Shown here: positions 15,101 through 32,569 of the stretch, piece by piece | How positions within the stretch are numbered: position 1 is the stretch's first letter | How the letters are laid out: the number at the start of each line of letters is the position of its first letter | Assembly: GCA_001896885.1 (NCBI GenBank) | Contig: MKRJ01000028.1 | Coordinates: 27,288 to 91,287, forward strand | From: Rhizobiales bacterium 65-79 | GTDB taxonomy: Bacteria; Pseudomonadota; Alphaproteobacteria; Rhizobiales; Rhizobiaceae | Length of the DNA: 64,000 nt | Direction of reading: 5' to 3' | Notes under the pieces: generated by a model | What the model saw: the letters and a program-made list of their open reading frames with translations, nothing else | Databases searched by the model: none | What the model was told of the DNA's origin: nothing | Position numbers and translations under genes: made by a program

Positions 15101-15103
15101 CAC

Positions 15104-18821: not shown

Positions 18822-18877
18822 CGCAAAGCTGCCGGAACAAGACGATTGCCGGAGGCGGCCGCCATTCGGTACGGTCG

Positions 18878-19570: not shown

Positions 19571-19584
19571 TTCGCCGCCCGCGA

Positions 19585-19995
19585 TCATCGCCCCGCCTCC
19601 TCAAGGAGCCCGGCGGCGCGGTCGGCAAGGTCGCGGTTGAAGGCGCCAAGGCGGATATCGATCTGCCGGCCGGCTGCGCCCTCGATGTCGCCGAGTTTTA
19701 GCAGCGGCGTGTCGATGCAATCGGCAAGGCAGGTGGCGAGCCGACCGGGCAGATGTCCGTCCAGCCACGCGAGCACCTCGTTGGCATGATCGTCGCCAAG
19801 CGGTTCCCAGCGCGCGCCCGGGCGGTCCTGACGGCAGAGCTTACCGTCGTCGACGCGAAAGCACGGAAAGCGCTCAAGCCCAGCGATGCAGGCGGAGCAC
19901 AAATCCGGTTCGACCCAATAACAGGCACCGTCCGCCGTCACGCAGGCGGCCATGTCGGTGCAGCCGCAGACGCGGCAGGCGCGCACGGCGTCCAT
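19585..19995 (-). CDS. Cys-rich, probable zinc-binding early phage protein
   Basis: This 136-residue protein has an N-terminal cysteine cluster, CRVCGCTDMAAC..DGACYW..PDLCSAC (residues 6-35), likely to bind zinc. A helical C-terminal half contains the segment RQIDIRLGAFNRDLADRAAG. The ATG at 19995 overlaps the previous stop as TGATG. Such small Cys-rich proteins are common in alphaproteobacterial Mu-like early regions, but no function is known to me. Confidence 0.7.
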   Translation of the reverse strand: MDAVRACRVCGCTDMAACVTADGACYWVEPDLCSACIAGLERFPCFRVDDGKLCRQDRPGARWEPLGDDHANEVLAWLDGHLPGRLATCLADCIDTPLLKLGDIEGAAGRQIDIRLGAFNRDLADRAAGLLEEAGR

Positions 19996-20600
19996 CACCT
20001 TGCCCTTTCGTACGGATAGATCGGGATCGGCCCGTCGACACGTTCGCCGGTAGTGAGGTTGACGGTCGAGCAGCCCTCGAGGCACCTAGCATGGCAGGTG
20101 CCGAGATTGATATCGGTCGCGCAGATATCACCGTCCTTGAAGGGCTCTCCGCAGACGGAACAGCCGTCGCGTTCTTCCTTCGGCCCGATCGGCACCGGCC
20201 CGAACCCGTGCGGGTTGAGCGGATCGTCGTCACGGCCGAGGCCACCCTTCATTCCGGCCTCGGTGCCATAGGGTGACGGATATCGCGCTTCTCGGCCTTC
20301 GATAGCCGCCAGCTTGTTCCGCGCAGCGGTCAGCCAGTTTCGAAGAGCGCCGCCGAGCCCCATGGTCGACGTGCTGCGAATGCCGGCGATGCGCACGGCC
20401 GTCTCGCTGCTCTTGTCGCGGATGGTCGCGCCGATCTGCACGACGGCCAGCTCCAGTGCGCTATCTGCCGATCGGCATGTATTGCGATAGGTCTCGTAAT
20501 CCTGCAGGGCGCTGACGACTTCCAGAGCTTTGGTGTGCGCGTCAACGGCGCGTTCGACGATTGGCAGGGCGGAGGGGAGGTCGAGGACGGGATCAGCCAT
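19995..20600 (-). CDS. Early phage protein with C-terminal Cys motif
   Basis: This 201-residue protein (start at 20600) is helical for residues 1-100. A flexible Gly/Pro-rich segment follows, then a C-terminal CSVCGEPFKDGDIC..GTCHARCLEGC cluster that looks zinc-binding. It overlaps the small gene upstream by 8 nt. It belongs to the block of small early genes between MuB and GemA. Function unknown. Confidence 0.68.
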   Translation of the reverse strand: MADPVLDLPSALPIVERAVDAHTKALEVVSALQDYETYRNTCRSADSALELAVVQIGATIRDKSSETAVRIAGIRSTSTMGLGGALRNWLTAARNKLAAIEGREARYPSPYGTEAGMKGGLGRDDDPLNPHGFGPVPIGPKEERDGCSVCGEPFKDGDICATDINLGTCHARCLEGCSTVNLTTGERVDGPIPIYPYERAR

Positions 20601-20796
20601 GATGCGCCTCCGTCTCTTCCGACATCTCGCCGAGGCAGCGCAGGCGCTCGTCGCAGTCGTCTGCATGATTTTCGAGCCGCTCCGCCAGCTCGCGCAGGAT
20701 GCGCGCCGCAGCGTGAAATGCGCCGTCCTCGGCGATGTAGGCGACCAGGACTAGCTGCTCTTCGATGTGCGCGTGAATGCTCTGCTCTTTTGCCAT
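20593..20796 (-). CDS. Small helical early phage protein
   Basis: This 67-residue acidic protein is predicted to be mostly helical (HIEEQLVLVAYIAEDGAFHA, then RILRELAERLENHADD). It starts 9 bp after the DUF3164 stop. It has no membrane segment or motif that I recognise. Confidence 0.65.
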   Translation of the reverse strand: MAKEQSIHAHIEEQLVLVAYIAEDGAFHAAARILRELAERLENHADDCDERLRCLGEMSEETEAHHG

Positions 20797-20805
20797 CGCC
20801 GCCCC

Positions 20806-21456
20806 CTATGCCTTGGCCAGGTCGATGGTGATGGCGCGCCAGGGCGCGTCCTGCTTGTCGCGGCGATAGCAGCGGACATATGTTTTCGAGCCCACCACCT
20901 TCATGGCGTCGCGGATCGCGGCCATGGCGCGCTGCCAGCGCTCGTCCTCGATGTCGAGGCGGAGCAGCATGAAGATTTCAGACCGGTTGATCTGGCCGGC
21001 CTTGTCGACGTTGAAGGCGCGGGCAACGATCGCCCGGATCTCGGGCCTGCTCTCCGCCGACCATTCGGTGAGGCACTCGTCGATCAGCGTCTTCGCCGTC
21101 TGCAGCTGCGCGCCGAAGTCGATGAAATCCGCCACCTGGACCTGCACCTTCATCAGCCCGTCGAAGGTCATGAAGGTCTTGTTGCCCTTGGTGCCGCCCT
21201 TCGAGGCGCCGTATTCCTGGGCGAGCAGCGCCTCGTAGGCGCCGAGATCGTCGAAGGTGTGCTGGCGGAAACGGGTGATCTGGGCGGAGAGATCGTCGGC
21301 ATAGCCGATGATCTTGCGCACCGTCTCGTCCTCCAGCTTGTCGGCCGGCTTGACCGATTCCAGCGGGACGAGATTGCCCTTGGCATCGGGCATATAGGGC
21401 TTGCCGTTGACCAGCGTCACGCCGACCGGGGTATCCTCAAGAATGACGGCGTCCAT
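20806..21456 (-). CDS. DUF3164 family early phage protein
   Basis: This 216-residue protein matches the DUF3164 family common in Mu-like phages. It has VNGKPYMPDAKGNLVPLESV, a helical KLEDETVRKIIGYADDLSAQ stretch, GNKTFMTFDGLMKVQVQVAD and a C-terminal WRAITIDLAKA. The family is sometimes mislabelled as a sulfate transporter; nothing here suggests transport. AAGGAG lies 7 nt before the start. Its role, perhaps in replication or host interaction, is unknown. Confidence 0.88.
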   Translation of the reverse strand: MDAVILEDTPVGVTLVNGKPYMPDAKGNLVPLESVKPADKLEDETVRKIIGYADDLSAQITRFRQHTFDDLGAYEALLAQEYGASKGGTKGNKTFMTFDGLMKVQVQVADFIDFGAQLQTAKTLIDECLTEWSAESRPEIRAIVARAFNVDKAGQINRSEIFMLLRLDIEDERWQRAMAAIRDAMKVVGSKTYVRCYRRDKQDAPWRAITIDLAKA

Positions 21457-21691
21457 GTCTTTCTCCTTTCGCTGGAAAGCGGATGATGTTGGCGGCGGCA
21501 GCGAGCGCCTCCGGATCGGGTTGCTGGCGGGCGGCGCGCAGTTCGAGAATCCGCGCCATGATCTCCAACTGGACGAGGCAGCGGCCGAAGGCGGCGAAGA
21601 TCTCGGGGTCGGCGGGCCGGCGGCCGGTGGCGAACGGCTCCAGCAGCGACGCCATCTGCGCGATCGACCGGCTCAAGGCGCGTTCACTCAT
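21437..21691 (-). CDS. Small early phage protein
   Basis: This 84-residue, mainly helical protein begins MSERALSRSIAQMASLLEPF and ends in a basic tail (PAKGERHGRRHS). It overlaps the DUF3164 start by 20 nt and the preceding gene by 8 nt. No function is visible. Confidence 0.65.
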   Translation of the reverse strand: MSERALSRSIAQMASLLEPFATGRRPADPEIFAAFGRCLVQLEIMARILELRAARQQPDPEALAAAANIIRFPAKGERHGRRHS

Positions 21692-22082
21692 GGCCGTCGC
21701 CTCGCTCCGGAGTCTGTCGAAGGGCCGAATGCGGACAGCCGCCCCGGCAGGCGTGATAGACCGAGACGCGGATGGAGCTGGTCGCGGCGAAGGGCTTCCT
21801 CTGCCAGTCGAGGCACTGGTTGCGGCCGATCTCGCCGAGCACCGGGCAGTCGACGACGACCCCCATCAGCGCGCCGCGCACCTTCTCCTCGACCCGTCCC
21901 ACGTCGCCCGTGTAGCGTGCGCGGATGACGTTGGAGAGCGCTGCCGGCGAATAGCCGATGCGCTTTTCCGCGCCGCGCAGGCCCTCGCGGTCGACGAGCT
22001 CGGCGAGCGCGACGATCCAGTCCGGCGCCGCGCCGCCATGCGCGGCGGCGGCCTTCTCCACCATGGTCGGGGTGGCGTTCAT
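21684..22082 (-). CDS. HTH phage regulator with C-terminal Cys residues
   Basis: This 132-residue protein has a Cro/YdaS-like helix-turn-helix (RGAEKRIGYSPAALSNVIRA, about residues 35-55) followed by RYTGDVGRVEEKVRGALMG. A C-terminal part carries spaced Cys (VVDCPVLGEI, NQCLDWQ, HACRGGC). The architecture recurs in rhizobial Mu-like elements. It is coupled to the previous gene by a 4-nt overlap. DNA binding is likely; its target is unknown. Confidence 0.7.
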   Translation of the reverse strand: MNATPTMVEKAAAAHGGAAPDWIVALAELVDREGLRGAEKRIGYSPAALSNVIRARYTGDVGRVEEKVRGALMGVVVDCPVLGEIGRNQCLDWQRKPFAATSSIRVSVYHACRGGCPHSALRQTPERGDGHE

Positions 22083-22699
22083 GACGACGCTCCGGCGCGG
22101 TCGAAGACCCGGTCCAGGTTCTGGTCGTAAACGTCCTTGCTGGCGAGCACGCGCGGCATCATGGGACCGGTGTTCATGCTCGGCTTCAGACGAAAGCTCG
22201 CCGAGCGCCGGGAGCCGAGGCGGAGCAGGTAGCCGGCGCGGGCGAGCAGGTTGACGTAGCTCTGCGCGCCGGCGCGCGTCACCGGCGCCTCGTCGGTCGA
22301 GCCGCAGAGCACCAGATCGTCGACGGTGAAGCCGCGCCGGCCGGCCGGACCGCGCATCACGTTCCACATCGACTGGCGGGCCGACAGGCGCGGCCGGTTG
22401 CCGCCGTCGCGATCGACGTTCGGCGTCGCCTTCTGCGGCTTGGCCAGCCGAAACTGGCGCCGGCGGCGGCCGGGTTCCGCGCCCGCGACCGTGCCGGCCC
22501 GGACGATGAAGCCCGCCTTTTCCAGCCGCCACATGAATTCGGCGACCGACGAGCGGCGCGGATCGTTGGAAAGGCCGTGCACGTCATCGACGGTGAATAG
22601 GCCACCGTTCGCCCCGAGCTTCCGGATGGTCGCCCAGGCATGGTCCTGGCCGCGCCGCGCGAGATTCCCGCGCAATCTGAACTTGACCTCGTTCGACAT
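22079..22699 (-). CDS. Early phage protein with two winged-helix-like repeats
   Basis: This 206-residue basic protein shows two similar halves. Residues 15-75 contain WATIRKLGANGGLFTVDDVH and LEKAGFIVRAG; residues 105-165 contain MWNVMRGPAGRRGFTVDDLV and LLARAGYLLRLGSRR. Each half resembles a winged helix with a FTVDD turn. It follows MuB with a TGATG overlap. A DNA-binding role next to transposition genes is plausible. Family not recognised. Confidence 0.68.
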   Translation of the reverse strand: MSNEVKFRLRGNLARRGQDHAWATIRKLGANGGLFTVDDVHGLSNDPRRSSVAEFMWRLEKAGFIVRAGTVAGAEPGRRRRQFRLAKPQKATPNVDRDGGNRPRLSARQSMWNVMRGPAGRRGFTVDDLVLCGSTDEAPVTRAGAQSYVNLLARAGYLLRLGSRRSASFRLKPSMNTGPMMPRVLASKDVYDQNLDRVFDRAGASS

Positions 22700-23451
22700 C
22701 ACGCGGCCTTCCGGAAGCGCTTCGGCGTCTCGCCGGTGAAGATGCGGCCGGAATAGTTGCCGATATCGAGGGTCGTGATGCCGCTGTTGGCGGCGAAGGA
22801 CGCCGCCTCGTTGAGCGTCGTGGCGATGCGCCTGGCCTTGCCGCCGGTCTCTTCGCGGATGCGGTCGAGCAATGCATCCGTGATCGACAGCTTCGGATAG
22901 AGGAAGCGGGCGAGAGCGCGGGTGTCTTCCAGGTCGCAGGGCTGAGCCAGCACCCATTCGAGCACGCGGTTGTGGACGCGCTCATGCGCTTCGAGCTTGT
23001 GCGGGAGAAGCTCCTCGCCGACGAGAAGCACCGGCACCTGCGCCGCCTTGTTGATGTCGCGCACCAGCTCGATCATCCCCTTGTCGACGAGCTTGTCGGC
23101 CTCGTCGATGATGAGGGGGCGCGACGGGTCGTCGCCGAGCCGCGCGATGATGTCGTCCATCAGGTCGCCGATCGTGCCCTTCGGCTGGGCGACGCCGAGT
23201 TCGGCCAGGATCGCCTGGCAGAATTTCTTTCGCGTCCAGAAGTCGAAGACCTCGACGAAGACGGCGCCCGTCTTGTTCCAGCAATATTGCGCCGCCATCG
23301 TCTTGCCGTAGCCGGAGAAGCCGGAGAGCACGCCGATGTTCGGGAGGTAGACCGGACGGTGCTGCAGCGTGTGGACGAGCGCCAGGCAGGCGGCGACGTT
23401 CTTGAGCGGCGCCACCGAGCCCGGCCGTACGTTTTGAAGGGTTGCGTTCAT
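22699..23451 (-). CDS. B: MuB-like transposition target-selection ATPase
   Basis: This 250-residue AAA+ ATPase has Walker A GFSGYGKT (residues 44-51), Walker B PLIIDEADK (112-120) and a sensor-2 region GGKARRIATTLNEAAS. MuB polymerises on target DNA, delivers it to the transposome and blocks insertion near itself. It lies 61 bp after the transposase gene as in Mu. It is shorter than Mu B (312 residues), lacking most of the N-terminal HTH appendage, which is common among non-enterobacterial relatives. Confidence 0.93.
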   Translation of the reverse strand: MNATLQNVRPGSVAPLKNVAACLALVHTLQHRPVYLPNIGVLSGFSGYGKTMAAQYCWNKTGAVFVEVFDFWTRKKFCQAILAELGVAQPKGTIGDLMDDIIARLGDDPSRPLIIDEADKLVDKGMIELVRDINKAAQVPVLLVGEELLPHKLEAHERVHNRVLEWVLAQPCDLEDTRALARFLYPKLSITDALLDRIREETGGKARRIATTLNEAASFAANSGITTLDIGNYSGRIFTGETPKRFRKAA

Positions 23452-23512
23452 TTCCTTGCCTGATCCTGTGGACCGCCCCCCGATCTGTTCGGGATGCCGC
23501 CCGGTGCCCTGG

Positions 23513-25672
23513 TTAGAGGCTCATCGCCTCGCCGAACTCGTCGAACACTTGACGCAACGCCTGGTATTCCGCCCCGGCGCGGTAACCGCCGAGCCAGAGG
23601 AGATCGCGCTCGGCGACCTCGTCGCCGGCGGCCATCCGCCTTTCGATGTCGAGGGCGCGGCGGAAGCGCTGTTCGCGCGTCTCGGGAAGCCTGGTGATCT
23701 CTCCCCTTGCCGGGGAGACGGCCGGGAGGGCCGAGGGGGCCGCCTCCTGGAGAAGCTCCGCGTGGAGCTTCGCCGCTTCCGCCGGCAGCGGCGCCGCCTC
23801 GTTCTTTCGCAAGGCGGCGCGCGCGGCATCGAGCGCCGGCGTGGAATGGGTCTCCCGACGCTGCGGGAAGGCGATCAGCTTGGCGGCCCGCTTCTCGCCC
23901 TGGCGGCGCACGGCATCGGCGATGGCGCGCGGGCCGATCTTCTTCATTTCGGCTCGGATCGGCCTGACGCGCTCGTCCATGAAGGCCTTCTGCGCGGCCT
24001 TGACCCGGGCGATGGTCTCGACCGGGTCGAGGCCGGCGAGTTCGGGGCAATGCGCCTCGCCGATGAAGATCTCGCCGTCCGGCTCGAAAAGCAGGATGCG
24101 GCCGAGGTCGGCCGGGTCCATGCGGCAGAAGACGGTGGTACCCGGCATGGCGGCGCCGGTGAGATAGTGCGAACCGCCGATGCGGATGCCGGTCTTGGTC
24201 ACGGTGCGCAGACCGTCCTTGCCCGGCGCCGGCGCCAGCAGCACGTCGAGCGCCGCTTCGCTGGCGATCCGCCGGACCTCGCCGGCATAGGCGGCGGCCG
24301 CCTGGAAAGGCGTGCGGCCGCCGAGGCCCTCGTGAGGGGTCGTGGCGTAGATCTTGTCCGACCAGTCGTCGCACCAGGCCTGGAACTCGGCGAGGTCCAT
24401 ATCGACCTCGAAGAGCTCGGCCGGATCGGCGCCGATGCGTTTTGAAAAAGCCTTGCGGTTTTCGATCACCTTGCGGTCGGCGACCGAGTGACCGATGAAA
24501 CCGGGCAGCCCCGCGAGGCTGCGCTGGAAGGTGCCGATCGCGCGCTCGACATTGCCTTTTGAACGCGGCTCGAAGGGCGCCGACAGCTTGACCTCGATGC
24601 GGAGCGCCGCGAGCAGCCGCTTGGTGGCGTGGGCGATGAAATCCGAGCCGTTGTCGGTGTTGACGATTTCCGGCACGCCCCAGGCCAGGATGCACTTGCG
24701 CATCAGGAGCCCGACGCCGGCGGCGCGCGGTGTCGGCGTCACGAGCACCTTCGTGCGCCTGGAGAAGATGTCGATCGCGAGATAGACCGAATGACGGCCT
24801 TGCTTCAGCATGACGTCGGCCGGCGAGGCGTCGATCTGCCACAGCTCGTTGAGGCGATCGGCGCGGGTGGCGTTGACAGCGGAGAATTCGACCGCGCTGC
24901 GGTAGCGGTCCGGATCGGTGAGGAGCAGCAGCTCGTTACGGTATTGGACTTTCCAGGTCTTGATTGTCTGCTGGATGGTCCGTAGCGGCGGTACGGGGAA
25001 CTCCGTGCCGAAATTGTCGATGATGAAGGCCTCGACGTCCTTCGCGGATATGAAAGGCTTCTTGGCGATCGCCGCCAGCACCGCCGTTCTGACCTTGCCG
25101 CCAAGCGCCCGGTCGAGCGCCCCGGTGCCTTTCCGCATCGCCGCGGCGTCGTAGCCGAGCGCATCGGTGCCGGCGCGGTCGCGGATCGAGCGCCAGCGCG
25201 CCAGCGTGCGCGCTGAAAGCTTCCCGATTTCCCCGGTGACGAAGGCCGGAACGTCGATTGAACCGGCGTTGAAGAGGTCGGAAAAGAGCGTGTCGGCGGC
25301 GACGATCGACAACGCCCCGTCATGGCGGAAACGGTCGGCGAGCCGGACGACGACCAGCCGCGCGTCGCGCACCGTCCTGCCTTTCGCCGTCAGACCGTCG
25401 GCATCCGTGATCGCCGGGTGCAGATCCTCCGCCACGACGCGCACGAAGCGGCCCGCATAGGCTAGCCGCAGGGGAAGCGGCAGATTGTCGATATGGTATT
25501 CGAGCCCGCCGCCGCCTTCGCGGCCGCGCCGCTCGCGGCAGAGGGTAGGCCGGCCATCCCATGCCTCGCGGCGGATCAGCTCGTTCATGCCGCGCTTGGT
25601 CGCCGGCAGGCCAGGCAGCGCGCCGTCGGCGGCGAGCTCTGCGAATTCCTGGGCGGTCAGCCACAGTTTCAA
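23513..25672 (-). CDS. A: MuA-like DDE transposase
   Basis: With the TTG at 25672 (GGAGGG upstream, TTGA overlap with the preceding stop) this is a 719-residue protein. The N-terminal Mu-type DNA-binding domain starts LKLWLTAQEFAELAADGALP. The rve core has WQIDAS (D281), VNTDNGSDF (D340) and KGNVERA (E376). A Mu-type C-terminal beta-barrel follows (GIRIGGSHYL.GAAMPGTTVF). D-to-E spacing is 35 residues, the classical DD35E, shorter than Mu's own. It cuts and joins the phage ends during integration and replicative transposition. An upstream ATG at 25906 would add about 78 unconvincing residues. Confidence 0.95.
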   Translation of the reverse strand: MKLWLTAQEFAELAADGALPGLPATKRGMNELIRREAWDGRPTLCRERRGREGGGGLEYHIDNLPLPLRLAYAGRFVRVVAEDLHPAITDADGLTAKGRTVRDARLVVVRLADRFRHDGALSIVAADTLFSDLFNAGSIDVPAFVTGEIGKLSARTLARWRSIRDRAGTDALGYDAAAMRKGTGALDRALGGKVRTAVLAAIAKKPFISAKDVEAFIIDNFGTEFPVPPLRTIQQTIKTWKVQYRNELLLLTDPDRYRSAVEFSAVNATRADRLNELWQIDASPADVMLKQGRHSVYLAIDIFSRRTKVLVTPTPRAAGVGLLMRKCILAWGVPEIVNTDNGSDFIAHATKRLLAALRIEVKLSAPFEPRSKGNVERAIGTFQRSLAGLPGFIGHSVADRKVIENRKAFSKRIGADPAELFEVDMDLAEFQAWCDDWSDKIYATTPHEGLGGRTPFQAAAAYAGEVRRIASEAALDVLLAPAPGKDGLRTVTKTGIRIGGSHYLTGAAMPGTTVFCRMDPADLGRILLFEPDGEIFIGEAHCPELAGLDPVETIARVKAAQKAFMDERVRPIRAEMKKIGPRAIADAVRRQGEKRAAKLIAFPQRRETHSTPALDAARAALRKNEAAPLPAEAAKLHAELLQEAAPSALPAVSPARGEITRLPETREQRFRRALDIERRMAAGDEVAERDLLWLGGYRAGAEYQALRQVFDEFGEAMSL

Positions 25673-25980
25673 GGGCGCGCCCTCCGATAGCCGATCTCCG
25701 ACCAGGCGGAGCTGACCGGTGCCGACTCCGTTGCCTGGCTGGGAGCCGAGGCCGGACGCGACGGAACGTGGGAAATCGCGACTTCGAGGTAGCGCTCGAG
25801 CGTTTCGGTCAGCCGCGCCCGGGCCTCTTCCGACTCGGCGCGGTCGCGCACGATGCGGGTGCGGACGAGAAGCCGGGCTTCGTGCGGCGGCAGCGAGAAA
25901 TAGCACTCGACACAGACCTCGTTCTCCTTGGGGATGGCGTGGTCGCAGCCGGGAACGGGGCAGCAGACGAGATCCGTCAT
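25669..25980 (-). CDS. Small Cys-containing early phage protein
   Basis: This 103-residue protein has an N-terminal Cys cluster (VCCPVPGCDHAIP and VCVECYFSLPP), probably one zinc site, followed by a helical part and a disordered Ser/Pro/Ala tail. The DHAIP.....C..C pattern is frequent in small phage zinc proteins. Its stop overlaps the transposase start (TTGA), so the two are translationally coupled. Function unknown. Confidence 0.72.
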   Translation of the reverse strand: MTDLVCCPVPGCDHAIPKENEVCVECYFSLPPHEARLLVRTRIVRDRAESEEARARLTETLERYLEVAISHVPSRPASAPSQATESAPVSSAWSEIGYRRARP

Positions 25981-26438
25981 CGCCGCCCCCGGAAGCGTGC
26001 TTCCAGTTCCTGCTTGCGCCGCACGATCTCGAATTGATGCTCTTCGATGAAATGCAGCTCGATCAGCGGCGCGTATTTCTCCGGCACCACCGCGCAGCCG
26101 AAGGGTTCGGCGACCAGGCCGAGGAGATCGAGGCAGCCGGTGGCCTCGATCAGCGCCATGAAGCGCTCCAGCGTGATCTTGTGGCTCTCCTTCGCCTCCG
26201 ACGCGTAGGCGTCGAGCATGTCGGCGCTGATCGGGCTGCCCAGCTTGGCGCTCATCGCCTCGGCGATCTCGCCGCGCGACTTGCCCGACCGCTTCAGCGC
26301 CAGGCCGACCGCGCGGCTGATCTTCGAGGACAGGCGGTCGCCGGCGAGATCGGCCGGCTCGAAACCCATTGTCGTCTTCGGCGGCTGCCAGTCGACGAAG
26401 AGATCGAGAGTGGAACGGTCGCCCCGCGCGATCGCCAT
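25977..26438 (-). CDS. Early phage protein with HTH-like middle
   Basis: This 153-residue protein has a middle helical region that could be a lambda-repressor-type HTH (ALKRSGKSRGEIAEAMSAKL, then GSPISADMLDAYASEAKESH) and a Glu/Arg-rich C-terminal helix. It is commonly found just upstream of MuA in alphaproteobacterial Mu-like phages. The ATG at 26438 overlaps the ParB-like stop as TGATG and is preferred to an ATG 9 nt upstream. Confidence 0.72.
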   Translation of the reverse strand: MAIARGDRSTLDLFVDWQPPKTTMGFEPADLAGDRLSSKISRAVGLALKRSGKSRGEIAEAMSAKLGSPISADMLDAYASEAKESHKITLERFMALIEATGCLDLLGLVAEPFGCAVVPEKYAPLIELHFIEEHQFEIVRRKQELEARFRGRR

Positions 26439-27280
26439 CAGAACCACCCCCTTTTCTTGGCGTGCGCGCGGACGAAAGCTTCCTGCGTGTCGAGGAAGTC
26501 GGCGCGCTCGCGTTCGCTCATGCGGGCGAAATTGCCGAGCGTGGAGGCGAAGCGCTTCTCCGACGCGGTGAGGAGCCGCCTGCCGGCGACCAGCGCCAGC
26601 GCGTCGGCGACGTTCGCGGCTTCAGGCGGCGAAGAGAAGAGGAGGTCGAGCGCCTGGTGCTGGGCCTCTTCCGGCTGTTCGGAGAGGAGGCGCAGGCCGG
26701 CCTGGTGGTCCTCGAGCCAGGTCTCGCGCAGCCGGTTCTTCACCGCATCGGAAAGCCCGGTTGCGATGGCCACCGCGATCTCGATCGCACGCCGCGAAAG
26801 GCCTGTCATTTCGGCCGCTTCCGATCGGAACGAAAAAATTTCGTTCTGATCGGCGCGGGCCTGCCGCGCTGCTTTCGAGCGGCGGTCTCCTCCGTTCCTG
26901 ACGAGGGGATAGAGGGCCTCGTGCAGCTCTTTCAGCTCCGCGAGGCTTTCCGCCTTTTCGAGCGCCGTCAGGCTTTCGCGATTGAGGTTCTCGGTGATCT
27001 CGAGCATGCGGCGCTGCTCGGCGGTGATCTCACCCGCCGGCGTCACGCGCGCGTCGACCGCCTCCCAGCCCGCCAGATGCGCGGCGTCGAGCCGGGTGGC
27101 GCCCGAGATCAGGGTGAACCGGCCGCTTTCCTCGGCGACAAGGTTGACCGGATGCTGCTGCGGCTGGCCGGCGGCGAATTCCTTGCCGAGCGTCTCGGCC
27201 CGCCATGGCTTGACCCGGCGAAGGCGATCCGCCGGAACGTCGATCCGGGTGAGCGGGATGGAGGCGAAATACGCGCTCAT
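26438..27280 (-). CDS. ParB-like nuclease/DNA-binding domain protein
   Basis: This 280-residue protein has a ParB N-terminal domain: IPLTRIDVPADRLRR, then HPVNLVAEESGRFTLISGAT and RLDAAHLAGWEAVDARV. A central HTH-like part (AAEMTGLSRRAIEIAVAIAT) and a helical C-terminus follow. No ParA partner is present, so classical partitioning is unlikely. In Mu-like phages such proteins occur early and may act in DNA binding or transcription. The start at 27280 overlaps the previous stop by 4 nt. Confidence 0.83.
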   Translation of the reverse strand: MSAYFASIPLTRIDVPADRLRRVKPWRAETLGKEFAAGQPQQHPVNLVAEESGRFTLISGATRLDAAHLAGWEAVDARVTPAGEITAEQRRMLEITENLNRESLTALEKAESLAELKELHEALYPLVRNGGDRRSKAARQARADQNEIFSFRSEAAEMTGLSRRAIEIAVAIATGLSDAVKNRLRETWLEDHQAGLRLLSEQPEEAQHQALDLLFSSPPEAANVADALALVAGRRLLTASEKRFASTLGNFARMSERERADFLDTQEAFVRAHAKKRGWF

Positions 27281-27510
27281 GCCGCGCCTCCATGCCGTGC
27301 GGCGATGCAATCGCGGATGACGCTCTCATTATCCTTGAGAAACTGCAGCGTCGAAAGGACGGCTTCCATGTGGGAAATCAGAAGGTCGGCCTCTGCCTGC
27401 CGCATCGAGCCCTTGCCGACCAGGCGCGGATAGACCTCGCGCCGCTTGCCGATCTCGCGACGGACCTCGGCGATCTGTGTCGCCAGCGACACCTTCGCGG
27501 GCGCGCTCAA
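27277..27510 (-). CDS. Small helical early phage protein
   Basis: This 77-residue protein is helical with basic character (TQIAEVRREIGKRREVYPRL, then QAEADLLISHMEAVLSTLQF). It is coupled on both sides by ATGA overlaps. No function is known to me, though the pattern recurs among rhizobial phage genes. Confidence 0.7.
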   Translation of the reverse strand: MSAPAKVSLATQIAEVRREIGKRREVYPRLVGKGSMRQAEADLLISHMEAVLSTLQFLKDNESVIRDCIAARHGGAA

Positions 27511-27917
27511 CGGCCGATCTCCAGCCGGTAGCCGCGCCCGTATTCGGCGACGATGGCGAGCTTCAGGCCGGCGAGCTGGCGCCGCAGATTGCAGACATGG
27601 ACCTTGACGCTGTCCGGATGCGGCTCGCGCCCGCGGTCGTCATAGACCCGGCTGTAGATGAAGTCGGCGGCGGCGGCGCGCGGATAGGTGTCGAAAAGCA
27701 CCTCGAAGATGGCGAACTGGTCGGGCGTCAGCCGGACGGCCGCGTCGCCGCGGCGCACCCGGGCCAGATCGGCGTTGAGGCAAACGCCCTTTTTCGATTT
27801 CGGCATGGCCTGGCCGCAACAGGGACAGGGCGCGCCCGCCGCCGGGGGCATGGGGAAGTGGCGGCGGGCGCGGCCGTCGGCGGCGTTCTGGGGGGTGCGG
27901 ACCGCTGACGGGATCAT
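27507..27917 (-). CDS. OmpR-type winged-helix regulator with zinc-like CPCC motif
   Basis: This 136-residue protein joins an N-terminal Cys cluster (APCPCCGQAMPKSKKGVC) to a Trans_reg_C winged helix: RLTPDQFAIFEVLFDTYPRA, HPDSVKVHVCNLRRQLAG and EYGRGYRLEIGR. There is no receiver domain, so it is not phosphorylation-controlled. A phage-encoded OmpR-type DNA-binding protein in the early operon suggests gene regulation during lytic development. The start at 27917 overlaps the previous stop by 4 nt. Confidence 0.8.
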   Translation of the reverse strand: MIPSAVRTPQNAADGRARRHFPMPPAAGAPCPCCGQAMPKSKKGVCLNADLARVRRGDAAVRLTPDQFAIFEVLFDTYPRAAAADFIYSRVYDDRGREPHPDSVKVHVCNLRRQLAGLKLAIVAEYGRGYRLEIGR

Positions 27918-28441
27918 GATTTTGCCTGCAGGCGGCGCGGGCAGACATCGCGGTGGCGAGAGGCCCAAATCTGGATGGAATGAGCCGGCTTGCCGAGCTC
28001 GGCTGCGATCGCGCTTATCTTCTCACCCCTTGCCCAGAGGCGGCGGATCGTCTCGACCTCCTCGGCCGGATATTCCGAACCCTTGGCCAGCCTGGGAGAG
28101 GACGGCGCCGCTGCCTTCGGAGGCAGCCCGCCCTTTAGCGCTGTTTGCCAGCCCTCCTTGATGCGCTCCACGAGGCTTTCGGAAATGCCGAGCGCGCGCG
28201 CCGTCATTGTGTTGGAGCCGTGGCCAGCACAGGCGAAGACGAGCTTCACGGTCTCGTCGAGGTCGCGGTCGGAGGCCGGAATCTCCTTTTCCTGGCCGAT
28301 GCGTGCCGCATAGGCTGCATCGAACAGGAGCCGGGCGTATTTGCTCGTCGGCATGTTCATCGCCGAGGCGCGCGCTTCGAGGCGGCGATAGAGCGCCTCC
28401 TCTATCGAGAACGCGATCTGGTGCAGGGACGGCGCGTTCAT
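27914..28441 (-). CDS. HTH-containing early phage protein
   Basis: This 175-residue protein (start at 28441) begins with a segment like a ribbon-helix-helix or anti-toxin-type region (HQIAFSIEEALYRRLEARAS). It has two HTH-like stretches: NTMTARALGISESLVERIKE, and YPAEEVETIRRLWARGEKIS with AIAAELGKPAHSIQIWASR. The last is typical of GcrA/SANT-like motifs in rhizobial phages. It is probably DNA-binding. It is coupled by 4-nt overlaps on both sides. Confidence 0.72.
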   Translation of the reverse strand: MNAPSLHQIAFSIEEALYRRLEARASAMNMPTSKYARLLFDAAYAARIGQEKEIPASDRDLDETVKLVFACAGHGSNTMTARALGISESLVERIKEGWQTALKGGLPPKAAAPSSPRLAKGSEYPAEEVETIRRLWARGEKISAIAAELGKPAHSIQIWASRHRDVCPRRLQAKS

Positions 28442-28623
28442 GGCAGCAGTCTCGCGACGCACAGCATCAGCATGACACCGGCGGAGGCGCCGATCGCCAG
28501 CACCAGCGCCGCCGCGACGACCAGGGCGGCTGTCGGCAGCGGGTCGGGCCTGACGACGAAGAAGGAAAATTCATCCGCGCCATTGTCCGCACTTGGGCGC
28601 GTTCCGGACCGGATGCGCTTCAT
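28438..28623 (-). CDS. Small single-span membrane protein
   Basis: This 61-residue protein has one strong membrane segment (about residues 30-58, from LPTAALVVAAALVLAIGASA) after a hydrophilic N-terminus. It lies directly after Ner with ATGA overlaps at both ends. Mu carries kil and other small host-takeover genes early, so toxicity to the host is possible, but nothing in the sequence proves it. Confidence 0.7.
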   Translation of the reverse strand: MKRIRSGTRPSADNGADEFSFFVVRPDPLPTAALVVAAALVLAIGASAGVMLMLCVARLLP

Positions 28624-28928
28624 TCGCCACCTTCCTTGTCCACAACGGGTGATCGGTTTTGACTCGCAAGCGAAAGGCGCGGCCTGCTAGAAGGGAGCCG
28701 GCGCCTGCCGTTCGGCCAGTAGCGGTCCGGCCAGAGCGTCTGCACCGGCATGCCGAGTGCCTTCGCGATGATCGTCTCCGCCTTCGGATATGGGGCGGCG
28801 AGCGCCGCGGAGACCTCGGAAGCCGATAGTGTCGTCTTCTGCTCCGCGAAGGCCTTCAGCGTGCCGAAGCGGCGCTTGATGATCGCCATGATGTCGTGGC
28901 GGTCCGTGATGGTCGCGTGCTGCTGCAC
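28620..28928 (-). CDS. ner: Ner-like early regulator
   Basis: With GTG at 28928 (GAGGG 7 nt upstream) this is a 102-residue protein. The core HDIMAIIKRRFGTLKAFAEQ, ending KALGMPVQTLWPDRYWPNGR, parallels Mu Ner (RADVIAELKKR ... IWPSRY). Ner binds the early operator and turns down the repressor and early promoters during lytic growth. It is the first leftward gene opposite the repressor, the expected place. The C-terminal ~35 residues extend beyond Mu Ner. An upstream ATG at 29009 would cross the operator. Confidence 0.88.
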   Translation of the reverse strand: MQQHATITDRHDIMAIIKRRFGTLKAFAEQKTTLSASEVSAALAAPYPKAETIIAKALGMPVQTLWPDRYWPNGRRRLPSSRPRLSLASQNRSPVVDKEGGE

Positions 28929-29003
28929 CGGCTGCCCTCGAAATGATCGACCCGGTCCGCAAGCCCGGTTCGATCGTGAAATAGTTCTGGTTTCCCAGAA
29001 GTG

Positions 29004-29039
29004 TCCCAAACGGGATGATTAGTCAATCCCATTTGGGAT
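29004..29039. promoter_or_regulatory. Twin operator dyads between ner and the repressor gene
   Basis: Two related dyads lie in the 128-bp ner/repressor gap: TCCC-AAAC-GGGA (29004-29015) and ATCCCA-TT-TGGGAT (29026-29039). Their centres are 23 bp apart, about two helical turns. Both share CCC-N4-GGG. A further half-like TTTCCCAGAA lies just before. These are the best candidates for repressor (and Ner) binding, covering the divergent lysis/lysogeny promoters. No clear -35/-10 boxes could be fixed. Confidence 0.75.
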
Positions 29040-29056
29040 GAAAAGCGGGAGGGTAT

Positions 29057-29659
29057 GTGGAAAAGGGGGCGGGCGAGCCGGACGAGCTGTGGCGGGAACG
29101 GCTGAGGGCAGCTGTTTCCGGCAATGGCGGTCCCACCGCGGTGGCCCGTTTATCCGGGGTTCCGATCCAGACGCTGAGAAACCACATGGGCGGCCGCACG
29201 AAGAAGGCGCCGCTGGAGGATTTGCGCAAAGTAGCCGATGCGCTGGGCCTCTCCTCATCCTGGCTGATGGCGCTCGACCGGGACGAGACTACTGGATTCG
29301 CCGAAGGCGACGTTGCCCCTTACAGCGGCGATTTGCCCGCCCTCGAAGAGCCGCTCGCCCATGCCCGTGGCCGCTGGCGGATCATGAGCCGCGCGCTCGA
29401 TCTCGCCGGAATTCTGCCCGGCGATATCGTCGAGTTCGACCTGAACGACATGCAGCCGCCGCGCGGTACCGTCGTCGTTGCGCAGCACTACCGCCCCGAT
29501 CGGCCGCAGGCTGACACCGTCCTACGCGTTTACGAGCCGCCCGTGCTTCTCGTGCGCACGACCGACGCGGCAATTGATGGGCGGCCGATCGAACTCGGAG
29601 AGCGTACCGTCGTCATGGGGTCTTTCCGGCGCCTCTACCGCGAGCGCCGCGGTTCCTAG
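29057..29659 (+). CDS. Phage repressor, HTH plus S24/LexA-like domain lacking the catalytic Ser
   Basis: This 200-residue protein starts at GTG 29057 with GGGAGGG just upstream. An HTH spans about residues 27-45 (TAVARLSGVPIQTLRNHMGG). The C-terminal part has an S24-like fold (GILPGDIVEFDLND, then PPRGTVVVAQHY and VLRVYEPPVLL). Where LexA/CI proteins have Ser-Met before the GD motif, this one reads Ala-Leu (RALDLAGILPGD), and the usual Lys is not evident. It should hold the lysogenic state but may not self-cleave with RecA. It faces ner across the twin operators. Confidence 0.88.
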   Translation: MEKGAGEPDELWRERLRAAVSGNGGPTAVARLSGVPIQTLRNHMGGRTKKAPLEDLRKVADALGLSSSWLMALDRDETTGFAEGDVAPYSGDLPALEEPLAHARGRWRIMSRALDLAGILPGDIVEFDLNDMQPPRGTVVVAQHYRPDRPQADTVLRVYEPPVLLVRTTDAAIDGRPIELGERTVVMGSFRRLYRERRGS

Positions 29660-29682
29660 CTAGGAGAGCAAGGGGTGACCTG

Positions 29683-29898
29683 ATGCCTGTGACCTTTGAC
29701 TATCCCGACCGTCCCCTTGATTGCCGAGAAGTGCTGTCCAGTGCGCTGTGCGCCATCGCCGATCAGGCCATAGCCATGGGGTGGGACAAAGAGGAAATCA
29801 CCGTCGCCATGATGGAAATAGCGAACGACTGGTATCTCGGTCAGGCTGCCGGAGAGACGGAGAAATCAATTGGCCGCATAGAGCAGCGTTCTCGCTAG
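29683..29898 (+). CDS. Small protein downstream of the repressor
   Basis: This 71-residue acidic helical protein begins MPVTFDYPDRPLDCREVLSS and continues with an ADQAIAMGWDKEEITVAMME stretch. It lies 23 bp after the repressor on the same strand and is probably co-expressed in the lysogen. Function unknown; a part in immunity is possible from position alone. Confidence 0.65.
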   Translation: MPVTFDYPDRPLDCREVLSSALCAIADQAIAMGWDKEEITVAMMEIANDWYLGQAAGETEKSIGRIEQRSR

Positions 29899-29952
29899 AA
29901 GGACGGTCAATTACCAAAAGGAATAATTGCGCAGCGCGGCCTTCGCATTCAG

Positions 29953-29969
29953 CCTCCCCGATCGGGAGG
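29953..29969. terminator. Hairpin between convergent genes
   Basis: CCTCCC-CGATC-GGGAGG forms a 6-bp GC stem in the 90-bp gap between the rightward repressor operon and the leftward gene at 29989-30285. Its place between convergent genes suggests a two-way terminator, though neither side has a proper U-tract. Confidence 0.45.
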
Positions 29970-29988
29970 GCTGATGGTAGAGACGCAA

Positions 29989-30285
29989 TCACTTCACTTC
30001 GATACGGGCGAGATACCGCTCGACGGCAACGGAAACCGCACGCGCAAAGATCCGGTCGCCGGACTCCCGACTAAAGCGGCGCGCCAGGCAGGTCGCCTTC
30101 TTCCTATCCCCGTCGGAAACATCGACGAAGAAACGGGCAATGCGCGCCACGTCCAGCGCCTTGACACTTCCAGGCGAATTTTTATGTCTATGAGAATAGA
30201 CATGGACCGGTCCGGACAAGGCGCCAACGGGCGCTTCTGAGAGCCGCTTCCTGAGCTCCACCCATTGTTCCGAGTCGGTGGACAT
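29989..30285 (-). CDS. Small basic protein divergent from luxR
   Basis: This 98-residue protein (start at 30285, GGGGGA 8 nt upstream) begins MSTDSEQWVELRKRLSEAP. It has a helical C-terminal half (VARIARFFVDVSDGDRKKAT, then RIFARAVSVAVERYLARI). It runs divergently from luxR, 73 bp away, so the two may share control. The opposite frame (29974-30240) is less convincing. I do not recognise the family; phage or host origin depends on where the prophage ends. Confidence 0.55.
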   Translation of the reverse strand: MSTDSEQWVELRKRLSEAPVGALSGPVHVYSHRHKNSPGSVKALDVARIARFFVDVSDGDRKKATCLARRFSRESGDRIFARAVSVAVERYLARIEVK

Positions 30286-30358
30286 CAATCGATCCCCCAA
30301 TTGCGTCCCCCGGGACACCTTTTATCGTCCCGAGGAGCCCTTGGGAAGGAGGAGTTCG

Positions 30359-31078
30359 ATGGCCAACCTCCATCTTGAAGCCCTGGAATTCGTCACCAGA
30401 ACCGGAAGCTATCAAAGCCTTCGCGAACTGAACGATGCATTCACCAGGCTCGTTTCGTCATTCGGCTTTCCGTCATTCATCTTCGCCGGTCTGCCCCGGC
30501 CGGGAGAGGATGTAAGGCCGCTGGTCATATCCAATCACTGGCCGCCGGCGTGGACAGATCGCTATCACGAGCAGGAATATTTCTCCGACGACCCGGTCAG
30601 CCGCTGGTCGCTCACCAAGCGTCGGCCATTTCTCTGGCGCGAAGCGCAGAGGCGTGAATGGACCAAACGCAGCGACCTGATTGCCGGCGAGGCGTGGGAG
30701 CACGGCCTGGCCGACGGCATCGCCTACCCGCTATCCGACCGGCAGGGCGGGGCCGTTATTTCCCTCGCTTCGGACTATTCGTTCCGCGCCGACGACTACG
30801 CGCAAGCATCGCTCTTTCTGGCCTGCAGCTATTTCAGGCACGCAGCCGAAGAGCTCACCGGCAGATCCGGAGCGCCGCAACCGGTCCTGACTCCGCGTGA
30901 AATAGAGGTCGCCCATTGGGCGGCCGCTGGCAAGACCGCCTGGGAAACTTCCGAAATCCTAGCGATAGCTGAGACCACCGTCCGGGCGCATCTCGCCTCG
31001 CTACGGGAAAAACTCGACGTCGCCACCACAACCCAAGCGGTAGACAAACTGGCGCTGTTAGGGATTATACAACTTTGA
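30359..31078 (+). CDS. LuxR-family acyl-homoserine-lactone receptor/regulator
   Basis: This 239-residue protein has GGAGGAG 5-6 nt before the ATG at 30359. The N-terminal autoinducer domain keeps the conserved Trp, Tyr, Asp and Trp around NHWPPAWTDRYHEQEYFSDD and FLWREAQ. The C-terminal LuxR helix-turn-helix is LTPREIEVAHWAAAGKTAWE, then TTVRAHLASLREKL. It should bind an AHL and regulate promoters with lux-box dyads. luxI follows 91 bp downstream on the same strand. It lies 700 bp beyond the phage repressor and before the candidate phage end, so it may be phage-encoded. Confidence 0.93.
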   Translation: MANLHLEALEFVTRTGSYQSLRELNDAFTRLVSSFGFPSFIFAGLPRPGEDVRPLVISNHWPPAWTDRYHEQEYFSDDPVSRWSLTKRRPFLWREAQRREWTKRSDLIAGEAWEHGLADGIAYPLSDRQGGAVISLASDYSFRADDYAQASLFLACSYFRHAAEELTGRSGAPQPVLTPREIEVAHWAAAGKTAWETSEILAIAETTVRAHLASLREKLDVATTTQAVDKLALLGIIQL

Positions 31079-31111
31079 AGGGTAGTCAATCCGCTGATCC
31101 GAGAGTGCTCC

Positions 31112-31130
31112 TCCACAAGCAGCTTGTCGA
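31112..31130. promoter_or_regulatory. Candidate lux box upstream of luxI
   Basis: TCCACAAGC-A-GCTTGTCGA is a 19-bp dyad with one mismatched pair and a perfect ACAAGC/GCTTGT core. It lies 39 bp before the luxI start, where a LuxR-AHL activator would bind near -40. Known lux boxes are 18-20 bp dyads of this kind, though usually with an even centre. Autoinduction of luxI by the adjacent LuxR is the natural reading. Confidence 0.65.
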
Positions 31131-31169
31131 ACAATCTCTCTGCGAATCAACCATGGCGGGGAGATTTCC

Positions 31170-31826
31170 ATGCAAGTTCACGTGGTTACATCGGCGAACA
31201 GAGACTTCTACAAGAAAGAGCTGCTGGGCTTCTTTCACGAGCGTCATCGGATCTACGTCGAGGAAAAGGGTTGGCGCGAGGATGATGGCACCGGGCTCGA
31301 AATCGACCAATTCGATACCGATGCCGCGACTTATCTCATTGGCGTCGAAGACGGTCGCGTCATGACCGGCACGCGCCTGATATCGACGACGTTACCTCAT
31401 CTGGCCAGCGAGATTTTCCCGCATCTCTGCCACTTCAACGGCGTGCTGCGCTCCCCGACCGTCGCAGAATGGACCAGGGGTTTTATCTCGCCGGAGTATC
31501 GAGAAAAAGGCATCGGCCCGATCAAAGGGCAGTTCTGCTCGGCCGTGATGGATTTCTGCCTGCAGGAAGGGATCGCCCAAGTCGGCGGCATCCAGGAACT
31601 CTACTGGCTGCGCTTGTGGAAGCGTTTCGGCTGGAAGGTGGATCCCGTCGGCTCGCCGGCCAAGGTCGACGGCAAGTGGTGTGTCGTTGCCTATATGCAG
31701 GTCAGCGAAGCTGCACGGGACGGCGCCATGGCGTCAGGGGGTATCGATCGCTCGATCCTCGTCAGGCGCGGCCCGCAGCAGCCGTTCATCGTGGCACCGG
31801 CGGCAGGAGAGACCTATGTCGCGTAG
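31170..31826 (+). CDS. LuxI-family acyl-homoserine-lactone synthase
   Basis: This 218-residue protein has the invariant LuxI residues. Arg, Tyr and Trp are in FFHERHRIYVEEKGW, acidic residues in EIDQFDTDAATYLI, Arg in GTRLISTT, and Glu/Arg in VAEWTRGFI. It makes an N-acyl-homoserine lactone from SAM and an acyl carrier; the acyl length cannot be read from sequence. GGGGAG lies 8 nt before the start. The last 11 bp overlap a small downstream gene. With the adjacent luxR it forms a complete circuit. Confidence 0.95.
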   Translation: MQVHVVTSANRDFYKKELLGFFHERHRIYVEEKGWREDDGTGLEIDQFDTDAATYLIGVEDGRVMTGTRLISTTLPHLASEIFPHLCHFNGVLRSPTVAEWTRGFISPEYREKGIGPIKGQFCSAVMDFCLQEGIAQVGGIQELYWLRLWKRFGWKVDPVGSPAKVDGKWCVVAYMQVSEAARDGAMASGGIDRSILVRRGPQQPFIVAPAAGETYVA

Positions 31827-32064
31827 CTCAGTGTCAGCGGTCAGTGCGTCCTCGCAGAGCTGCGGCGCTTCAACCGTTTCCGTTCCTCAAAAAGCGGCGG
31901 CTGATTACATCGGGGAAGTTGTTTTTGAATTAGCTGCCGTAGCGGCGGTCAGCGGGATGCCGCTGATCCATTATTTGCTCTGCATGGTGCTGGCCGAAAC
32001 GCACAATATCACCCGTCATATGGAAGCGGCCGATGTCAGTTCGGGCGAGGAAGGCGCTGACTGA
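31816..32064 (+). CDS. Small protein overlapping the end of luxI
   Basis: This 82-residue protein starts inside the last 11 bp of luxI in another frame, so it is coupled to it. A Ser-rich N-terminus is followed by a helical core (ADYIGEVVFELAAVAAVSGM, then PLIHYLLCMVLAETHNI). Rhizobial LuxI genes are often followed by small regulators such as CinS or QseM; this could be an analogue, for example an anti-activator. Similarity is only suggestive. Confidence 0.65.
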   Translation: MSRSSVSAVSASSQSCGASTVSVPQKAAADYIGEVVFELAAVAAVSGMPLIHYLLCMVLAETHNITRHMEAADVSSGEEGAD

Positions 32065-32123
32065 GGCAATCCATATCTAGAAATGTGCCATCGGCATTTC
32101 ATGCAGCCGCGGGGATAACATTC

Positions 32124-32152
32124 TGAGGTTCCCACCTTGAAGGTGATCCTCA
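32124..32152 (+). terminator. Hairpin downstream of the lux operon
   Basis: CACCTT-G-AAGGTG (32133-32145) is enclosed by TGAGG/CCTCA (32124-32128 and 32148-32152). It lies 60 bp after the stop of the small gene following luxI. It is probably a transcription-end hairpin, but without a strong U-tract. Alternatively it is a regulator dyad. Confidence 0.45.
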
Positions 32153-32307
32153 CGGCTGCCAGAATAGCGCATCTCGTTGATTTTACTGAATTCGAAGAAG
32201 GTGAGATCGAAGCTACGAACCACCATGGTGAGTTCCCACCTCGCCGGGTCAACACCTGAAATTCCGCCTTTTCTCGGGTGCCGGATCAGCCGTTTTGCCC
32301 CGCATCA

Positions 32308-32330
32308 TGCCAACCGAAGTTGCGCGCCAC
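32308..32330 (+). repeat. Inner copy of the ~23-bp end repeat (candidate transposase site)
   Basis: TGCCAACCGAAGTTGCGCGC plus CAC matches the copy at 32444-32466 at all but a few positions (shared TGCCAACCG-A-TTGCGCG-AC). It lies about 157-180 bp from the proposed end, within the distance over which Mu spreads its left-end MuA sites. Confidence 0.6.
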
Positions 32331-32443
32331 TTCTGACCATCGCCCCGGGCTACCTCGCCAGATCGGTTGCAACATCTTGTAATCGCGCTCTTTTTCGCTC
32401 TTTCCCAGCTGTTACCGCCTATTCCCGGAAAAGCCCTGGTTCT

Positions 32444-32466
32444 GCCAACCGTACTTGCGCGTTACA
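32444..32466 (+). repeat. Outer copy of the ~23-bp end repeat (candidate transposase site)
   Basis: TGCCAACCGTACTTGCGCGT plus TAC is the second direct copy, about 21-44 bp from the CA at 32486-32487. A site this close to a TG...CA end is what the outermost Mu-type transposase site would look like. Both copies have the same orientation. Confidence 0.6.
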
Positions 32467-32495
32467 AAACGGATTTTGATTTTGCCAGTGAAGGC

Positions 32496-32569
32496 TGGAG
32501 CGGGTGAAGGGAATCGAACCCTCGTATTCAGCTTGGGAAGCTGCTGCTCTGCCATTGAGCTACACCCGC
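32496..32569 (-). tRNA. tRNA-Gly (CCC)
   Basis: The minus strand folds as a 74-nt tRNA. The acceptor is GCGGGTG/CACCCGC with discriminator U and an encoded CCA (32496-32498). The anticodon stem CAGCT/AGCTG holds loop TTCCCAA, anticodon CCC at 32535-32537, and the T arm has GGTTCGATTCC. It is the first host feature beyond the prophage. The prophage does not use it as an integrase attachment site, since no integrase exists. Confidence 0.97.

What the first reader, a model, noticed from the sequence alone, without database searches (positions are those of the whole stretch)
29057..32495. A complete LuxR/LuxI quorum-sensing circuit lies between a Mu-like phage repressor and the candidate phage left end
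luxR, a candidate lux box, luxI and a small overlapping gene lie 0.7-2.4 kb beyond the repressor, on the side where Mu's left end must be. Host housekeeping genes begin only after tRNA-Gly. Two ~23-bp direct repeats and a CA end lie between the lux genes and the tRNA. If the end is at about 32487, a Mu-like prophage carries both AHL synthase and receptor and could couple lysogeny, induction or exclusion to cell density. Phage-borne LuxR receptors are known; a full synthase-receptor pair in a transposable phage would be unusual. The gene calls are firm; membership in the prophage is inference.
Basis: partly seen in the sequence, partly recalled or inferred. Interest (0 to 1): 0.92.

Follow-up and report, generated by a model that had tools for sequence, protein, structure and literature searches.

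The report
Mu-like prophage carrying LuxR-LuxI quorum sensing
A 46-kilobase virus genome lying in the DNA of a rhizobium-type bacterium carries, inside its own boundaries, genes predicted to make and to sense a chemical signal, and so would likely let the virus gauge how many neighbouring cells already carry it before it wakes.

Summary
The central inference holds. The luxR-luxI pair (30359-31826) lies inside a Mu-like prophage, between its repressor (29057-29659) and its left end. The ends are now mapped at base level: TGTA...TACA termini, left end at 32466, right end 13.9 kb left of the window start (contig C28:13363), 46,391 bp, with a 5-bp target duplication AAACG on both sides. Four related prophages have the same termini, each with its own perfect 5-bp duplication (5 of 5). 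Two same-genus genomes lack prophage and luxI; one keeps the site empty next to tRNA-Gly. The related prophages examined lack luxRI; one carries a SIR2/STAND gene in the same slot. The repressor is predicted to fold like lambda CI but lacks both catalytic residues. Precedent exists: a July 2026 preprint shows LuxI/LuxR in a Mu-family Phaeobacter prophage driving lysogeny, with such modules reported only from the Roseobacter clade. This one is in the rhizobial family, beside an intact Ner/repressor switch. Most likely the signal reports lysogen density to that switch; direction and target are untested.

The parts
1..32466 (.). Part of the Mu-like prophage that lies in the window (whole prophage: contig C28:13363-59753, 46,391 bp)
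   Evidence: Termini TGTA...TACA and AAACG duplication; phage genes across it
32462..32466 (+). Left terminus of the prophage (TTACA; read inward TGTAACGCGCAA)
   Evidence: Same 12-bp terminus at the left end of related prophages; ends verified in 5 prophages
32467..32471 (+). 5-bp target duplication AAACG, left copy (right copy C28:13358-13362)
32444..32461 (+). Terminal repeat nearest the left end (likely transposase site)
   Evidence: inverted copies at the right end
32309..32326 (+). Second left-end repeat, 135 bp inward (130-141 bp in four relatives; in two of them one copy is inverted)
31816..32064 (+). Small gene overlapping the luxI stop, 82 aa, no homologue found; CinS-like by position and size only
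31170..31826 (+). luxI, predicted acyl-homoserine-lactone synthase, 218 aa
   Evidence: PF00765 69.7 bits, cut-off 24; invariant R25, W35, D46, D49, R69, R103 and near-invariant E100
30359..31078 (+). luxR, predicted AHL receptor, 239 aa
   Evidence: PF03472 and PF00196; LasR, RhlR and CviR are the closest solved structures
29683..29898 (+). Small gene behind the repressor, 71 aa
   Evidence: phrog_37486, unknown function
29057..29659 (+). Phage repressor: HTH plus predicted lambda CI/LexA-type domain without catalytic Ser and Lys
29004..29039 (.). Divergent ner/repressor promoter region with two dyads, TCCC-N4-GGGA (likely repressor operators)
28620..29009 (-). ner-like gene (longest frame; true start may lie further in)
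   Evidence: HTH_35 63.5 bits, phrog_769
26438..27310 (-). ParB-like gene
   Evidence: phrog_3264
23513..25906 (-). MuA-like DDE transposase
   Evidence: rve, Mu-transpos_C, HTH_Tnp_Mu_1; phrog_310
22699..23451 (-). MuB-like transposition protein
   Evidence: phrog_296
16550..17167 (-). GemA
   Evidence: PF06252
1300..13123 (-). Head and packaging genes: major head protein, protease, MuF-like protein, portal, large and small terminase
   Evidence: connector and tail genes continue left of the window
32496..32569 (-). Host tRNA-Gly(CCC), outside the prophage, edge of a variable site

Best explanation
[quoted passage not shown] Shown: the ends, the 5-bp duplication, the position of the genes, and that related prophages have the same Ner/repressor pair without luxRI. 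Inferred: LuxI makes an AHL, LuxR binds it, and the liganded LuxR acts on the phage. The direction I think most likely is towards lysogeny, by raising transcription on the repressor side, because luxR and luxI follow the repressor on the same strand with the Ner-like gene divergent, an order like that of the tested Mu-family Phaeobacter Phage A. A self-made signal would then mean that most neighbours already carry the phage.
For: Ends and duplications in 5 of 5 prophages where both ends were located. luxRI between repressor and left end. Catalytic LuxI positions kept. LuxR has both domains. Order ner(-) / repressor(+) - small gene - luxR - luxI resembles hth / xre-luxR-luxI of Phage A, where the module drives lysogeny (sections 5, 6 and 12 of PMC13345283). 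The repressor lacks the CI/LexA catalytic pair, so RecA-driven self-cleavage is unlikely and another input is plausible.
Against: Relatives keep repressor and ner without luxRI, so the pair is an add-on, not the switch itself as in Phage A. 460 bp separate the small gene from luxR, so co-transcription with the repressor is not shown. No lux box above chance: the dyads at the ner/repressor promoter look like those in relatives without luxRI (my reading) and are better taken as repressor operators. The gene order is only an analogy; I had no Phage A sequence to align. Nothing was measured.
Confidence: 0.45

Rival explanations
1. Same prophage circuit with the opposite sign: at high AHL the operon makes the small protein 31816-32064, which inactivates the non-cleavable repressor and induces the phage, as CinS inactivates PraR in Rhizobium and as small proteins under LuxR/XRE control inactivate CI in Aeromonas phages.
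For: The small gene overlaps the luxI end by 11 bp; an ATG frame of 45-140 aa overlapping the luxI end was found mechanically in 24 of 52 other distinct luxI loci (listing). CinS is a small protein co-transcribed with CinI that inactivates the Cro/CI-type repressor PraR (passages of PMC4149787). LuxR-XRE-small protein modules induce prophages without DNA damage, and those small proteins also lack homologues (passages of PMC10432266). The repressor has no catalytic Ser or Lys.
Against: The protein search found no relative of the small protein but itself (limited to sequences sharing short exact words), and its profile score against CinS-like proteins (11.1) is reached by 3 of 30 shuffles. In the Aeromonas phages the signal comes from the host, not the phage.
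Confidence: 0.25
2. Cargo with a target in the host: luxRI sits in a slot for accessory genes and alters host behaviour or surface at high density, without touching the phage switch.
For: The stretch has lower G+C (58.6%) than the phage part 1-29659 (66.3%) or the host part 32600-64000 (65.4%). G320 carries an unrelated SIR2/STAND gene in the same slot. The switch genes are conserved without luxRI. The host genome has a second luxI, 32% identical, on contig C45.
Against: Placement next to the repressor, and a tested Mu-family precedent where the pair controls the phage.
Confidence: 0.25
3. luxRI belongs to the host and only lies next to the prophage.
For: The tRNA-Gly flank is a variable site; rhizobial genomes carry related luxRI.
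Against: The left end with its matching duplication lies beyond luxRI; the empty site lacks luxRI.
Confidence: 0.02

Closest known systems
Phaeobacter inhibens T5 Phage A, Mu family, xre-luxR-luxI module (PMC13345283, preprint July 2026; abstract, sections 3, 5, 6, 12, 14, 29 and part 1 of section 15 read, plus passages)
   Same: Mu-family prophage with synthase and receptor; divergent HTH gene; luxR and luxI on the strand of the regulator
   Different: Phage A lacks recognizable Ner/C and the module is the switch; here a Ner-like gene and a CI-like repressor are present, luxRI is set apart by 460 bp, a small gene follows luxI, and the host is of the rhizobial family, while the preprint reports its prophage modules only from the Roseobacter clade
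XRE-LuxR-small protein modules of Aeromonas phages Apop and ARM81ld (PMC10432266; abstract and passages read)
   Same: Phage LuxR plus small ORF of no known family acting on the repressor circuit
   Different: Signal (C4-HSL) is host-made in that work; linear plasmid-like phages, not Mu-like
Rhizobium leguminosarum cinIS with PraR (PMC4149787; abstract and passages read)
   Same: Small gene behind an AHL synthase gene; target is a Cro/CI-type repressor
   Different: A bacterial regulatory system; homology of our small protein to CinS not shown
Rhodobacter phage RC1 and Rhodovulum phage RS1
   Same: Closest phage records by transposase, 48.8% identity
   Different: Not among the 3 records with a LuxI match
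luxRI of Mesorhizobium zhangyense (677-kb contig)
   Same: LuxI 64%, LuxR 47% identical
   Different: Of 16 proteins of our phage region tested, only LuxR and LuxI match in its 20-kb locus

Membership tests
Mu-like transposable phage | DDE transposase with Mu C-terminal domain | tested here: met
   rve, Mu-transpos_C and HTH_Tnp_Mu_1 above cut-off
Mu-like transposable phage | MuB-like protein and GemA | tested here: met
   phrog_296, PF06252
Mu-like transposable phage | 5-bp target duplication at TG...CA ends | tested here: met
   AAACG on both sides; 5 of 5 prophages with both ends located
Mu-like transposable phage | Repeated transposase-site-like sequences at both ends, inverted | tested here: met
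   binding itself not tested
Mu-like transposable phage | Replicative transposition and virions with host flanks | not testable with these tools
   Needs phage particles
LuxI AHL synthase | PF00765 and catalytic residues | tested here: met
LuxI AHL synthase | Makes an AHL | not testable with these tools
   Needs expression and mass spectrometry
LuxR receptor | Autoinducer-binding and LuxR HTH domains | tested here: met
   PF03472 88.4 bits, PF00196 55.1 bits
Phaeobacter-type xre-luxR-luxI lysogeny module | Counter-oriented HTH gene next to the regulator gene | tested here: met
   HTH_35 gene 28620-29009 on - strand
Phaeobacter-type xre-luxR-luxI lysogeny module | xre, luxR and luxI in one three-gene operon | tested here: inconclusive
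   Repressor has an XRE-like HTH by predicted fold but a 71-aa gene and 460 bp separate it from luxR
Phaeobacter-type xre-luxR-luxI lysogeny module | No recognizable Ner/C in the phage | tested here: not met
   Ner-like HTH_35 protein and CI-like repressor present and shared with relatives lacking luxRI
Phaeobacter-type xre-luxR-luxI lysogeny module | AHL-LuxR activates the lysogeny promoter | not testable with these tools
   Needs reporters
cinIS-type operon | Small gene coupled to the synthase gene | tested here: met
   ATG inside the luxI end, 11-bp overlap
cinIS-type operon | Small protein homologous to CinS-like proteins | tested here: inconclusive
   Profile score not above shuffles; no authentic CinS sequence was at hand
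SOS-cleavable CI/LexA repressor | Catalytic Ser and Lys | tested here: not met
   0 of 7 repressors have Ser or Lys at the matching columns; the Lys register is ambiguous, no Lys in either register

The most novel reading that the evidence does not exclude
A transposable phage of rhizobia has fitted an existing, SOS-blind Ner/repressor switch with a portable, self-made AHL sensor: LuxI and LuxR report lysogen density, and the small protein encoded with luxI is the antirepressor that trips the peptidase-dead repressor. This would be phage quorum sensing bolted onto a classical switch, arising outside the Roseobacter clade, with an antirepressor of new sequence.
Probability: 0.2. Interest if true: 0.85.

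Novelty: new variant of a known kind. Interest (0 to 1): 0.62.

Why it matters
Phages that make as well as sense an AHL have only just been described, and a screen of Alphaproteobacteria reported prophage xre-luxR-luxI modules only from the Roseobacter clade (PMC13345283, section 14). A base-resolved case in the rhizobial family suggests the trick has been invented or moved more widely. Because related prophages keep the same repressor and Ner genes without luxRI, this phage allows a clean comparison: what does adding a self-signal do to an otherwise similar lysis-lysogeny switch? The terminal motif and duplication rule given here also let others map the ends, and so the cargo, of this phage group in draft genomes.

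Tried and rejected
End at 32487 with duplication GTGAA: rejected. The right-end candidate with the same spacing to its repeat (TGTCCG, C28:13342) is preceded by CTTCC, not GTGAA; alignment with relatives moved the ends inward to the shared TGTA motif, where AAACG matches.

Lux box between luxR and luxI: rejected as evidence; several related luxI loci do show 18-bp dyads about 75 bp before luxI, though by shuffles only part of those are above chance. An 8-4-8 dyad at 30184-30203 is unique in the window but 35 of 500 shuffles of its region do as well.

Small gene as a CinS homologue: not shown. Joined empty site: of 4 same-genus genomes only our own matched, at the phage junction; flanks in the others are diverged.

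Other phages with this LuxI: two IMG/VR scans, by protein and by 20-row alignment, found only one contig, 99.99% identical to this window and running into the same host tRNA flank. In 50,697 phage records LuxI matched 3: two are records of one Acinetobacter phage name, of which the stretch read looks bacterial; one is an unverified faecal scaffold with a LuxR-like match beside it, phage nature not checked. A more diverged phage LuxI would be missed. Order-wide transposase searches gave no answer. The closest LuxI proteins (81-88%) lie on contigs of about 2-2.5 kb whose context could not be fetched.

Literature: that I found no rhizobial case rests, open-licence papers only.
Full report
WHAT IS THERE. 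The window is C28:27288-91287 of a 5.13-Mb draft genome. luxR (30359-31078), luxI (31170-31826) and an 82-aa gene overlapping the luxI end (31816-32064) are open and on the + strand. LuxR has the autoinducer-binding and HTH domains, LuxI the synthase domain, all above Pfam cut-offs. In an alignment of 20 LuxI proteins the positions R25, W35, D46, D49, R69 and R103 are invariant and E100 nearly so; that these are the catalytic set is recalled knowledge of the family.

ENDS OF THE PROPHAGE. Related prophages in G146, G320 and G339 (transposase 66, 65 and 63% identical) have a like layout: two left repeats 135-141 bp apart (in G146 one is inverted) and two right repeats 23 bp apart, as in ours. 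Aligning ends showed the shared terminus TGTA[A/G]CGCGCAA. Taking it as the end gives a perfect 5-bp duplication in all five prophages where I located both ends (adding G254, transposase 50%): ours AAACG, G320 CGTAG, G146 CCACG, G339 CCAAT, G254 GATGG. Lengths are 46,391, 46,230, 45,033, 42,883 and 43,825 bp. I also read 12 kb on the early side of 16 of the 18 remaining transposase matches (G222 and G315 were not read): the left terminus TGTAACGCGCAA was found in 6 of the 16, and no such motif in the other 10.

EMPTY SITE. In same-genus G001 the host gene and tRNA-Gly are about 10 bp apart; in G002 about 4.7 kb of unrelated genes lie there. Neither has a transposase match at E <= 1e-30 or a LuxI match at E <= 1e-15. 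The third same-genus genome, G003, has a LuxI match of 38% identity on a 3.4-kb contig. In our genome 0.6 kb between the host gene and the right end did not align to either relative.

PHAGE CONTENT. Transposase, MuB-like protein, GemA, DUF3164, ParB-like protein, MT-A70 methyltransferase, both terminase subunits, portal, MuF-like protein, protease, major head protein, connectors, tape measure and central tail fibre were recognized. Thirteen genes from tape measure to small terminase are 27-71% identical to those of G146, G320 and G339; the tail-fibre side (C28:14.4-21.3 kb) gave no match there at 1e-8. The gene set looks complete; activity is unknown.

LUXRI IS CARGO. Of 394 family genomes drawn, 22 have a related transposase. 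Eight of these 22, ours included, have a LuxI match at E <= 1e-15, but only ours has it in the phage: in the other seven it lies on another contig or at least 147 kb away. tblastn of 26 early-side loci found LuxR-like matches only in G339 (L120 and its IMG/VR copy L033), outside the left end and so on the host side, and no LuxI; three of the 26 (L028, L029, L031) stop at the repressor, so their slot was not seen. Between repressor and left end G146, G339 and the IMG/VR prophage L027 have under 0.5 kb, while G320 has an 868-aa SIR2/nSTAND gene. The stretch 29660-32308 has 58.6% G+C against 66.3% for the phage part 1-29659.

ORIGIN. The closest LuxI proteins are unnamed ones on short contigs (81-88%) and one of a Rhizobiaceae MAG (78%). 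The closest named genome locus is in Mesorhizobium zhangyense, 64%; of 16 proteins of our phage region only LuxR and LuxI match there. I had no Phaeobacter Phage A sequence, so independent origin is likely, not shown.

MECHANISM. Phage A of Phaeobacter, of the Mu family, has hth divergent from xre-luxR-luxI; LuxR with its AHL activates the lysogeny promoter, and inhibiting it induces the phage (PMC13345283). Our gene order is similar, so I favour a lysogen census that supports lysogeny. The main rival is induction through the small protein, by analogy to CinS-PraR and to LuxR-XRE-small protein modules. Sequence does not decide between them: no lux box rose above chance and the search found no relative of the small protein.

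NOVELTY. [quoted passage not shown] This case adds a host of the rhizobial family (G217, of the same family by the tool, has a contig of the same length as the Mesorhizobium zhangyense record), an intact Ner/repressor pair, and a separate cargo slot. New variant of a known kind.

Noticed in passing
L119:11248-13854 (G320): A related Mu-like prophage carries a SIR2 plus nSTAND NTPase gene (ThsA and weak Avs5 matches) in the same slot between repressor and left end: a likely anti-phage cargo.
   Followed up: partly
L120:5811-6920 (G339): A LuxR-type gene followed by a roughly 75-aa ORF lies just outside the left end of a related Mu-like prophage, on the host side by the mapped duplication.
   Followed up: partly
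L001 (G000:C45, about 0.1-1.5 kb of the locus): Second luxI, 32% identical to the phage one, in the same genome, behind what reads like a luxR gene: a possible partner for cross-talk.
   Followed up: no
L017:9630-14347 (G002): The same site next to tRNA-Gly holds about 4.7 kb of other genes in a same-genus genome: a variable insertion site.
   Followed up: no
L015:12718-13357: About 0.6 kb between the last shared host gene and the right phage end does not align to either same-genus relative.
   Followed up: no
L146:4308-5234 (G288): 308-aa ORF between a repressor-like ORF and the left end of another Mu-like prophage, possibly further cargo.
   Followed up: no
L156 (CAKLQH020000009.1): Record filed as Acinetobacter phage MD-2021a has lasI and sdiA among acyl-CoA metabolism genes; the stretch read looks bacterial.
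   Followed up: partly
L157 (MT835580.1): Unverified faecal 'Bacteriophage sp.' scaffold has LuxI-like and LuxR-like matches side by side; phage nature not checked.
   Followed up: no
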